DNA of 38,554 nucleotides, from positions 1-38,554 of the forward strand of contig JACDGU010000005.1 of the NCBI GenBank assembly GCA_013821475.1, read 5' to 3'. The translations under genes and the position numbers were made by a program. How positions within the stretch are numbered: the first letter of the stretch is position 1; the number at the start of each line of letters is the position of its first letter. The DNA comes from Solirubrobacterales bacterium (lineage in GTDB: Bacteria; Actinomycetota; Thermoleophilia; Solirubrobacterales; 70-9). Under the pieces are notes generated by a model. That model was not told the origin of the DNA. It worked only from the letters and a program-made list of their open reading frames with translations, and made no database searches. Shown here one piece after another: positions 2,171 through 38,554 of this stretch.

Positions 2171-2192
2171 GCCTGCGAGCTTAAGACCAGAG

Positions 2193-2300
2193 GGAGGGTC
2201 GGGTGCCCCTCCTCTTGCCTGACTGGCTGGATCGCTGGGAGTCGTCCGAGATCGCTTTTGGGCCAGCGGCACAAACGTTCGGAGGGGCACCCCGACCTCC
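2193..2300. repeat. Imperfect inverted repeat (about 19-bp arms, 68-nt interior)
   Basis: ggagggtcgggtgcccctcc (2193-2212) pairs with ggaggggcaccccgacctcc (2281-2300), one bulge per arm. Confidence 0.75.
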
Positions 2301-2336
2301 ACCCGTCCCCAAATCCGGACAGAGAGATCGGACCGA

Positions 2337-2375: not shown

Positions 2376-2484
2376 GCTTGGGCTCCGATTCGGGGTCTGA
2401 GTCCGGAAAAGCTTCCGTCCCTCAAGCTCCCCGGTCCCCGGGAGCTCTCGTTCCCCCGGAACCTTCGAGCGAGACGACGAGGGA

Positions 2485-2540
2485 ATCGGGTGGGGCTCGC
2501 CAAGCCTCCCCGCTTTTCGCGCAGGTGCGTCCCACCCGAT
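2485..2540. repeat. Palindromic element with 10-bp perfect inverted ends
   Basis: atcgggtggg (2485-2494) and cccacccgat (2531-2540); its interior is part of the 53-bp repeat shared with 38502-38554. Confidence 0.75.
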
Positions 2541-2554
2541 CCCCGCTCGCCTGC

Positions 2555-3829
2555 CTAAGCCGGAACCGGCTCCTTCGCCGCCTCTGACTGGGCCATCGCT
2601 TTCGCGGCGACCTCCGCTCCGTATTCGAAGCGCTCGGCGTATTCGCGCGCCTGCATCCGCGAGATGACCATCCGCTGAATCTCCGCGGTGCCCTCGAACA
2701 GCTGGTAGATCTTGGCGTCGCGGAACCACTTCTCGAGCGGGCACTCGGTGTTCCAGGCATAGGGGCCGACCAGGTCCATCAGCGTCGTCGTCGCCCACAT
2801 CGTCACGTCGCCGGCCTTGAGCTTCGACATCGAGCCCTGGCCACCGGTCATCGGCACGCCGTTGCGGCCCATCCAGGAGGCGCGCTGGACCAGCAACCGG
2901 GCCGATTCGATCTCGGTCGCGACGTCGGCCAGCGTCTGCTGGACGCGCTGCATTTTCAGCATCGGCACGCCGCCTTCGGAGCGGCTGTCGAGGTACTCGA
3001 GGGTCCACTCGTAGGCCGCCTGGGCGATGCCCAGGGCGGAGGCGCCGACGATCGGCCGGGTGATCTCGAAGGTCGCCAGCGCGTCGGCCGAGCGCGAGCG
3101 CTTGCCGGAGCGGGCGCGCTCGAGCTTGCGCTCCAGCTTCTCCTCGCCGCCGAGCAGGTTCTCGACCGGGACCCGGCATTCGTCGAGCACGACCTCGGCC
3201 GTGTGCGAAGCGCGGATCCCGAGCTTCGACTCCTTCTTGCCCTGGCTCAGGCCTAGGGTGTCCTTGCCGACCACGAACGAGGCCTGGCCGCCGGTGCCGA
3301 GCGCGGGGTCGACGGTGGCGACGACGACGTGGACATCGGCGATGCCGCCGTTGGTGATGAAGACCTTGGTCCCGTTGAGGACGAACTCGTCGCCATCACG
3401 CCTGGCCGTCGTCTTCAGGCTCTTGACGTCGGAGCCGGCCTGGGGCTCGGTCACCGCATAGGCGCCGAGCTTGATCTCGTCGCCGACGCCGAAGCACTCC
3501 GGGACCCAGTAGCCGATCTGCTCGGGGGTGCCGCTGGCGGCGATGCCGGCCGCGGCGAGGCCCGAGCCGGCGATCGCCAGAGCGGTGCCGGCGCAGCCCC
3601 AGTGCAGCTCCTCGGCGGCGATCACTCCCATCATGCCCTCGGAGTCGCCGGCCTGGCGCTGAAGCGCCTCGATCCCCTGGAATCCCTGGCGGCGCGCCTC
3701 CGCGACGACCTCCCAGGGCATGCTCTCCTCTTCGTCGTGCTTGCGCGCGGCGGGGCGGATCACCTCGCGGGCGAACTTGCGGCACTTCGCCTGAAACTCG
3801 CGCTGCTCCTCGTTGAGTTCGAAATTCAT
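2555..3829 (-). CDS. Acyl-CoA dehydrogenase
   Basis: [28 protein letters not shown]..., [35 protein letters not shown] with catalytic EGT motif. Confidence 0.95.
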
Positions 3830-26463: not shown

Positions 26464-27855
26464 TCATCGCGGCACCAGGCTCGGCCCGTCGGCCGAGTCC
26501 CTGACCGTCCACCCTATCTCCGCCAACCGATCCCGAATCGCATCCGCCCGCTCGAAGTCCCTGGCCCCCCGAGCCTCCTCCCGCTCCATCATCAAAGCAT
26601 CAGCCTCCGAGTCGGCAGCTCCTTCCGCGGAAGCCAACGAATCCAAACCAACCAGCTCGAGCATCTCTCTGAGTGCCTCCGGAGCTCCGGGAACCCTCTC
26701 CCGGTTCGCTTCCCCCACCAGCTCAGAGACCTCGGCCATCGCGCGAGGGGTGTTGAAGTCATCGGCAAGCGCATCCCGGAAGGAGGTGAGACGGGAGTCG
26801 GGGGAGGACCCGGGGGAGCTTCCCCGCTGTTGCTCCGCCGGGTCCTCCCCCGGGTCCCCCTCACCCGCTGCCCGGAGCGGGTGCCCCCGAAAGAAGTTCC
26901 GCAGCCGCTCAACCCTCGCAGCCGCCTCTTCCATCTGCTCCGGTCCAAACGCCAACGGCTGGCGGTAATGCCCGGAGATCAGGTACGCGACGACCGCCTC
27001 ACGTCCGTACCGATCCAGTGCCTCGCCCAGCTGGAAGATGTTCCCGTCCGATTTCGACATCTTCGCCGCATCCGACTCGATCATCCCGTTGTGCATCCAG
27101 ATCTGGGCGAACGGCCGCCCGGCCGCCTCCGACTGGGCGATCTCGTTCTCATGATGGGGGAAGACGAGGTCCGAGCCGCCGCCGTGGATCGCGAAGGAAG
27201 CGCCCAGCTCCTGCTCGGCCATCACCGAGCACTCGATGTGCCAGGCGGGCCGCCCCGGGCCCCAGGGCGAGTCCCAATGGCTGTCCTCACCCTCCTTGTG
27301 CGCCTTCCAGAGGGCGAAGTCGAGGCGGTTCTCCTTCAGCGAGGCCGAGCCCGCCTCCTCGCCCTGGTCCATGTCCTCGGGACGGCGATTGGAGAGCTTG
27401 CCGTAGTCGGCGAAGCTGCGGACGCGGAAGTAGACGTCGCCGCCCGACGCGTAGGCGTGCTCGGAGCGGACCAGGTCCTCGATCAGGGCGATGATGCCGG
27501 AGATCGTCTCGGTCGCCAGCGGCTCCGCGTCGGGACGGCCGAGCCCGAGCCGGTCGGTGTCCTCAGAGTAGGCGGCGGTCATCCGCGCGGCGAAATCGGT
27601 CGAGGGCTCCCCTGCTGCCGTTGCGGCAGCGTAGATCTTGTCGTTGACGTCGGTGACGTTGACGACCAGGCGGGTGCTGTAGCCCTCCGAGCGGAGGAAG
27701 CGGGCGAAGAGCGAGAAGACGACGAAGGGCCGGGCGTTCCCGATGTGGATCCGGCTGTAGACGGTCGGCCCGCAGGCGTAGATCCCCACCACTTCCGTGG
27801 GGTCGATCGCCCGCGGCTCGCCGCTGAGCGTGTCCCTGATTCGAACCTCGCGCAT
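26464..27855 (-). CDS. cysS: Cysteinyl-tRNA synthetase
   Basis: YACGPTVYSRIHIGNARPFVVFSLFARFLR, GRPAWHIECSVMAEQELGASFAIHGGGSDLVFPHHENEIAQSEA, KMSKSDGN. Confidence 0.97.
   Translation of the reverse strand: MREVRIRDTLSGEPRAIDPTEVVGIYACGPTVYSRIHIGNARPFVVFSLFARFLRSEGYSTRLVVNVTDVNDKIYAAATAAGEPSTDFAARMTAAYSEDTDRLGLGRPDAEPLATETISGIIALIEDLVRSEHAYASGGDVYFRVRSFADYGKLSNRRPEDMDQGEEAGSASLKENRLDFALWKAHKEGEDSHWDSPWGPGRPAWHIECSVMAEQELGASFAIHGGGSDLVFPHHENEIAQSEAAGRPFAQIWMHNGMIESDAAKMSKSDGNIFQLGEALDRYGREAVVAYLISGHYRQPLAFGPEQMEEAAARVERLRNFFRGHPLRAAGEGDPGEDPAEQQRGSSPGSSPDSRLTSFRDALADDFNTPRAMAEVSELVGEANRERVPGAPEALREMLELVGLDSLASAEGAADSEADALMMEREEARGARDFERADAIRDRLAEIGWTVRDSADGPSLVPR
26799..26852. repeat. Long stem-loop inside cysS (21-bp stem with one mismatch, 12-nt loop)
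   Basis: cgggggaggacccgggggagc-ttccccgctgtt-gctccgccgggtcctcccccg. Confidence 0.9.
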
Positions 27856-38320: not shown

Positions 38321-38501
38321 GCCCATGTGTTCATTAACGATACCGGGACCGGCCGGCCGGCTTGTCGTGCGGGTCGTCCGGTAACGCGGGCTTTCCGCGC
38401 GAAGCAGGCAGATTTCGCGGTGAGGCTGGGCGAGGGGGGCTTGGGTGTCCCTTCCGCTTGCTGGGATTTTCGTCGGGAGGCCGCCTGCTGGGGAAGGCCA
38501 A

Positions 38502-38554
38502 GCGGGCGGGGATCGGGTGGGACTCGCCTTCGCGAACTGCGGGGAGGCTTGGCG
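38502..38554. repeat. Dispersed repeat copy (inverted relative to 2498-2550), truncated by window end
   Basis: gcgggcggggatcgggtgggactcgccttcgcgaactgcggggaggcttggcg matches the reverse complement of 2498-2550 at 47/53 positions, ungapped. Confidence 0.9.

What the first reader, a model, noticed from the sequence alone, without database searches (positions are those of the whole stretch)
2498..2550. 53-bp dispersed intergenic palindromic repeat, second inverted copy at 38502-38554
The reverse complement of 2498-2550 (gcgagcggggatcgggtgggacgcacctgcgcgaaaagcggggaggcttggcg) aligns without gaps to 38502-38554 with 6 mismatches. Both copies are non-coding. Copy 1 has inverted ends ATCGGGTGGG...CCCACCCGAT. 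Substitutions cluster in the middle while both flanks are conserved, as expected of a structured or mobile REP/MITE-like element. Two copies in 38 kb suggests a genome-wide family.
Basis: seen in the sequence. Interest (0 to 1): 0.6.

Follow-up and report, generated by a model that had tools for sequence, protein, structure and literature searches.

The report
Self-complementary DNA hairpin repeat family
The repeat is one copy of a roughly 70-base DNA hairpin that has spread to many places in the genomes of one group of actinobacteria, just after genes and also in frame inside them, with a conserved loop and stem sequences that keep changing yet stay almost perfectly complementary.

Summary
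The 53-bp repeat is part of a ~70-bp near-perfect palindrome (hairpin). Its loop core (AACWGCGGGGAGGYK) occurs 44 times in the 2.7-Mb host genome, against 0 for the reversed-pattern control. The window holds a third copy, in frame inside cysS (26791-26860); the 38502 copy is cut by the contig end. A covariance model finds the family in all 12 genomes of the genus (305 places) and one sister-genus genome, but in none of the other 110 order genomes sampled. The loop is conserved. The 20-25-bp arms differ between copies yet pair 96.8%, every pair with compensatory changes, with no excess of G.U over A.C mismatches and with loop inversions at orthologous sites. That points to upkeep of the palindrome as DNA, probably by template switching, more than to selection for an RNA fold. 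Copies sit a median 14 nt after stop codons, or in frame inside genes, in both orientations. Window copy 1 is absent from all 11 congeners, menD copies are lineage-restricted, and two copies in one relative share identical arms, so the element moves. REP/RAYT and integron attC are not supported. Best reading: a new, RPE-like family of non-autonomous mobile palindromes; mobiliser unknown.

The parts
2478..2550 (-). Copy 1: complete hairpin; arms 2481-2494 and 2531-2544, loop core AAAAGCGGGGAGGCT at 2503-2517; about 10 nt after the stop codon of the acyl-CoA dehydrogenase gene, same strand
   Evidence: fold z -2.9
38502..38554 (+). Copy 2: 5' arm and loop only (core 38535-38549); the 3' arm is cut off by the contig end
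   Evidence: match flagged as cut at 3'
26791..26860 (-).
26467..27855 (-). cysS (cysteinyl-tRNA synthetase), host of copy 3
2555..3829 (-). Acyl-CoA dehydrogenase gene whose stop codon precedes copy 1; orthologues in all 11 congeners lack the element at this site
   Evidence: name inferred from the translation, not scanned against Pfam
2192..2310 (-). Separate dispersed repeat B (about 117 bp, ~20-bp inverted-repeat ends), 140-266 nt 3' of the hairpin in 8 of the 9 places it was seen

Best explanation
A lineage-specific family of short, non-autonomous mobile palindromes. Each copy is a ~70-bp hairpin: two ~20-25-bp arms around a conserved asymmetric loop (for example TCTCTCACGAACWGCGGGGAGGTTCGTTC, or AACAGCGGGGAGGCT directly on the stem). 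Copies spread by an unidentified mobilising activity that leaves no target-site duplication I could detect (shown: spread; inferred: mobilisation in trans). They are found mainly where they do little harm: directly after stop codons, or in frame inside genes, in several reading frames and both orientations (shown). After insertion the arms mutate but are repeatedly recopied from each other by DNA-polymerase template switching, so they stay complementary, lack RNA-style G.U intermediates, and occasionally invert the loop (pattern shown; mechanism inferred). The loop cannot be repaired this way and is conserved, so it is probably the recognition sequence of the mobiliser or of a bound factor (inferred).
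For: Copy number and control. Clade restriction: 12/12 genus genomes; of 121 order genomes only genus members and G250; an exact 20-mer in only six Solirubrobacterales/Actinomycetota MAGs of the 84,980-species collection. Mobility: menD filled in 4 and empty in 7 congeners, net +60 nt in frame; window copy 1 absent from 11/11 congeners; L102 and L116 at unrelated loci of one genome share identical 20-bp arms. In-frame copies. Covariation: 96.8% paired, 21/21 pairs compensatory, score 0.918 against 0.232 shuffled and at most 0.19 slid. DNA-level: outer arms 1138 Watson-Crick, 20 A.C, 8 G.U; 66 double changes against 28 one-sided between orthologous copies. Loop inversions: cysS in G196 and a methyltransferase-like gene, own genome against G305/G286. 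Arm homogenisation and spacer inversion by template switching are described in PMC8604942 and PMC8794818.
Against: No transposase or autonomous partner found; no target-site duplication. The tight position after stop codons and the sense bias between genes (34 against 12 among co-directional pairs) suggest targeting or a function. Selection for a DNA cruciform would also give symmetric, G.U-poor arms, so template switching is not uniquely shown. Inverted loops could be independent insertions at one site.
Confidence: 0.68

Rival explanations
1. A structured RNA element: a 3'-UTR hairpin (terminator, mRNA stabiliser or ribosome-interacting element) whose Shine-Dalgarno-like GGGGAGG loop is recognised in the transcript.
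For: Median 14 nt after the stop codon of a sense gene, 33 of 34 co-directional copies nearer the upstream stop, sense bias between genes; loop conserved with strong covariation of the arms.
Against: G.U pairs are not in excess over A.C on the conserved-loop strand (8 against 20); copies inside genes lie on both strands (23 sense, 25 antisense in relatives); inverted loops at orthologous sites; lineage-specific absence; no Rfam match.
Confidence: 0.15
2. REP elements mobilised by a RAYT (Y1) transposase.
For: Palindromic, dispersed, placed after genes; intragenic REPs are known.
Against: No Y1_Tnp in 12/12 genomes while the search rang in control genomes; no GTAG foot (3.5%), CGTC at the 3' foot in only 22%; stems 20-25 bp.
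Confidence: 0.04
3. Integron attC-like recombination sites: structure-conserved hairpins placed after stop codons.
For: Hairpins with variable arms that abut stop codons in sense orientation.
Against: No integron integrase above the curated cut-off in 12 genomes; copies are dispersed, not in cassette arrays; many lie inside housekeeping genes.
Confidence: 0.03
4. Chance palindromes or an assembly artefact; many contigs end in the element.
For: Contig ends fall in the repeat, so some own-genome copies may be counted twice.
Against: Interior copies in better-assembled relatives with orthologous positions; 44 against 0 control; the chance core matches in viral contigs and in G226 have no palindrome.
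Confidence: 0.01

Closest known systems
Rickettsia palindromic elements (RPE)
   Same: Short dispersed palindromes in a single lineage, between genes and in frame inside unrelated protein genes, several families per genome (PMC10969869, PMC3733652)
   Different: About 70 bp against ~150 bp for RPEs; conserved loop with hypervariable, almost perfectly pairing arms; different phylum; no sequence relation tested
REP elements / RAYT (TnpA-REP) system
   Same: Hairpin repeats close to the 3' ends of genes, in tens of copies
   Different: No GTAG foot, stems 20-25 bp instead of 5-13, no G.U excess, no Y1 transposase found in the genus
MITEs
   Same: Non-autonomous inverted-repeat elements with no gene of their own
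   Different: No target-site duplication and no partner transposon found; arms not conserved in sequence
Integron attC sites
   Same: Variable sequence with conserved hairpin form, next to stop codons
   Different: No integron integrase, not in arrays, found inside genes
Template-switch (quasipalindrome) evolution of hairpins
   Same: Double-sided stem changes and loop inversion are the patterns described in PMC8794818 and PMC8604942
   Different: Here in a repeat family of about 300 places, which would make the process visible many times

Membership tests
REP / RAYT | GTAG (or CGTC) tetranucleotide at one foot of the hairpin | tested here: not met
   GTAG in 3.5% of 5' feet, CGTC in 22.5% of 3' feet against 11% background, n=142
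REP / RAYT | Stem of 5-13 bp | tested here: not met
   Mean stems 20.5-22.7 bp; REP range from PMC3733652
REP / RAYT | Y1 tyrosine transposase (PF01797) in the genome | tested here: not met
   0 of 12 genus genomes
Rickettsia palindromic elements (as a kind) | Palindromic repeat inserted in frame in unrelated protein genes | tested here: met
   cysS, menD, Lhr-like helicase, radical-SAM cofactor-synthesis, MMPL and other genes; empty sites in relatives
Rickettsia palindromic elements (as a sequence family) | Sequence homology to the described RPE families | not tested
   RPE sequences were not compared; a 20-base core string was found only in Solirubrobacterales/Actinomycetota MAGs
MITE | Target-site duplication | tested here: not met
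   Flank direct repeats hardly better than shuffled flank pairs
MITE | Autonomous partner with the same ends | tested here: inconclusive
   None noticed in the fetched loci; no systematic search was made
Integron attC | Integron integrase (TIGR02249) in the genome | tested here: not met
   Only generic tyrosine recombinases, 0 of 12 over the cut-off
Structured RNA family | Match to a described Rfam family | tested here: not met
   Window: only a tRNA; eight loci: none
Structured RNA family | G.U pairs tolerated in the stem on the functional strand | tested here: not met
   8 G.U against 20 A.C among 1174 outer pairs

The most novel reading that the evidence does not exclude
A mobile element whose form is kept by self-copying: only the loop is conserved as sequence, while the arms are continually rewritten by template switching and stay complementary, so the hairpin itself, not its sequence, is what persists at hundreds of sites, including inside housekeeping genes.
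Probability: 0.45. Interest if true: 0.7.

Novelty: new variant of a known kind. Interest (0 to 1): 0.56.

Why it matters
Strong compensatory covariation is usually read as proof of a functional RNA. Here is a family with near-perfect covariation whose mismatch pattern, use of both strands inside genes and loop inversions argue for a DNA process instead, so it is a natural test bed for template switching and a warning for RNA discovery pipelines. It also extends RPE-like in-frame palindrome insertion to Actinomycetota and to housekeeping genes such as cysS and menD, and it probably explains why this draft genome is broken at so many similar places.

Tried and rejected
REP/RAYT (no Y1 transposase; no GTAG). 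Integron attC. Rfam families. Phage carriage: five IMG/VR core matches have no palindrome, so chance. Target-site duplications: none detected. Arms as inverted copies of the target, suggested by the 60-nt net menD insertion against a ~67-nt hairpin: rejected as a general rule because L102/L116 carry identical arms at unrelated loci. Programmed translational bypassing, suggested by the SD-like loop: no support, since insertions keep the frame and read through without stops. A paper search on stop-codon-proximal REPs found nothing.

Full report
Observation. The window is one whole contig of a draft genome (G000:C153; 2.72 Mb in 252 contigs). A search of the own genome with a 70-nt version gave 36 matches, and a search with the core AACWGCGGGGAGGYK gave 44 exact matches against 0 for the reversed pattern. 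Many contigs start or end inside the element, so the own count is an upper bound: one broken copy may be seen from both sides. A third window copy lies inside cysS at 26791-26860.

Anatomy. Aligned copies show a hairpin of median 68 nt: two arms of 20-25 bp and an asymmetric loop. The conserved part is the loop, AAC(A/T)GCGGGGAGG followed by a pyrimidine, with subfamilies that differ just outside it (own genome: CACCTGCGCGAAC...GGCTTGGCG; SZAS/RYN/70-9 MAGs: TCTCTCACGAAC...GGTTCGTTCA; a third type GGAGCAACAGCGGGGAGGCTCC). In G192 and G305 the 5' part of the loop varies more and GGGGAGG is the most stable piece. The arms differ between most copies but pair almost perfectly.

Distribution. A covariance model from 49 copies finds 6-65 places in each of the 12 genomes of the genus, 305 in all. 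In 121 genomes of the order only the ten genus members in that sample and one sister-genus genome (G250) match. The exact string CACGAACWGCGGGGAGGTTC occurs in only six MAGs of the GTDB species collection, all titled Solirubrobacterales or Actinomycetota (SZAS-9, -10, -14, -15, 70-9, RYN_247). Several of these MAGs are the G handles, as shown by identical loci (for example L101 and L163, L116 and L124).

Where copies sit. With a small codon-usage gene finder, 66 intergenic copies with a sense gene upstream start a median 14 nt after its stop codon, and 33 of 34 copies between co-directional sense genes are nearer the upstream stop. Between co-directional genes 34 copies are sense and 12 antisense. 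In relatives 48 of 119 copies are inside predicted genes, 23 sense and 25 antisense. These keep the frame and encode short peptides such as SPSQQRGGSVESSP, SLTNSGEVRSG, SRTAGRFAQG or DPRTNLPAVRERGG, according to frame and strand. Hosts include cysS, menD, an Lhr-like helicase, a radical-SAM cofactor-synthesis gene and an MMPL transporter. These names rest on recognisable motifs in the translations, not on a Pfam scan.

Mobility. In menD the element is present in G272, G286, G307 and G311 and absent in G000, G192, G196, G222, G305, G306 and G309, a net gain of about 60 nt in frame. In cysS it is older: present in ten genus genomes examined and in G250, absent in G306. Window copy 1 is absent behind the orthologous gene in all 11 congeners, including G196 and G222 at 88-89% DNA identity. 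Two copies at unrelated loci of one genome (L102, L116) share identical 20-bp arms, so the arms move with the loop. No target-site duplication was detected.

Why DNA rather than RNA. On the ungapped alignment of 49 copies, 96.8% of cells pair, all 21 pairs show compensatory changes, and the covariation score is 0.918 against 0.232 for shuffles and at most 0.19 for slid partners. If an RNA helix on the loop-bearing strand were being selected, G.U intermediates should outnumber A.C mismatches. In the outer arms there are 1138 Watson-Crick pairs, 20 A.C, 8 G.U and 8 others. Between orthologous copies, 66 stem differences are double and 28 one-sided, some of the latter in the unpaired inner part. 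At orthologous sites the loop is sometimes inverted relative to the gene: cysS in G196 and a methyltransferase-like gene in the own genome against G305 and G286, with a third probable case in an MMPL gene. Arm homogenisation and spacer inversion are two described signatures of polymerase template switching between inverted-repeat arms (PMC8604942, PMC8794818). A model of selection on a DNA cruciform would predict the same symmetric mismatch pattern, so the template-switch step is inferred.

Known families. REP: foot motif, stem length and transposase were all tested and not met. Integron attC: no integrase over the cut-off. Rfam: nothing. MITE: no duplication, no partner found. The closest kind is the Rickettsia palindromic elements, which also insert in frame into unrelated genes (PMC10969869). 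This family works like them, but no sequence kinship is claimed.

Limits. The mobilising enzyme is unknown; the G genomes are drafts; the gene finder is home-made; the sense bias and the stop-codon proximity are not explained by the mobile-palindrome model alone and leave room for a function of the hairpin in the 3' region of transcripts. CysS and other host proteins were not tested for activity.

Noticed in passing
window 2192-2310; also L003, L005, L007, L008/L026, L009, L015, L019, L022: A second dispersed repeat (~117 bp, ~20-bp inverted ends GGAGGGTCGGGTGCCCCTCC, conserved interior) lies 140-266 nt 3' of the hairpin in the same relative orientation in 8 of 9 places, forming a composite intergenic unit; among the loci held it was seen only in the own genome.
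   Followed up: partly
L356-L373 (G272), L317, L320, L323: A second hairpin family with loop CYGGCAGGCTGTGRNC: 268 matches in G272, 101 in G307, 56 in G309, 48 in G286, none in the own genome. In G272 it bounds, as inverted pairs 450-750 bp apart, a gene-free mosaic repeat with more internal palindromes.
   Followed up: partly
L312, L319, L321, L132, L136, L151, L156, L323: A third palindrome family with conserved outer ends GTTGAYGGGCCGAAAA...TTTTCGGCCCRTCAAC and a variable but paired interior.
   Followed up: no
window 38424-38486; L010, L019, L020: Another short repeat, GGCGAGGAGGGGTTGGGTGTCCCTTCCGCTTGCTGGGATTTTCG, near hairpin copy 2.
   Followed up: no
L187 (G309 menD): menD of G309 is 94% identical to that of G272 before the element's site but 79% after it, with one in-frame TAG: possible recombination or assembly join near the insertion site.
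   Followed up: no
L117 (G286 Lhr-like helicase): The same gene appears to hold a second, decayed antisense copy (peptide SFGEDSPEPPGSCSAESSP) absent from the G222 orthologue.
   Followed up: no
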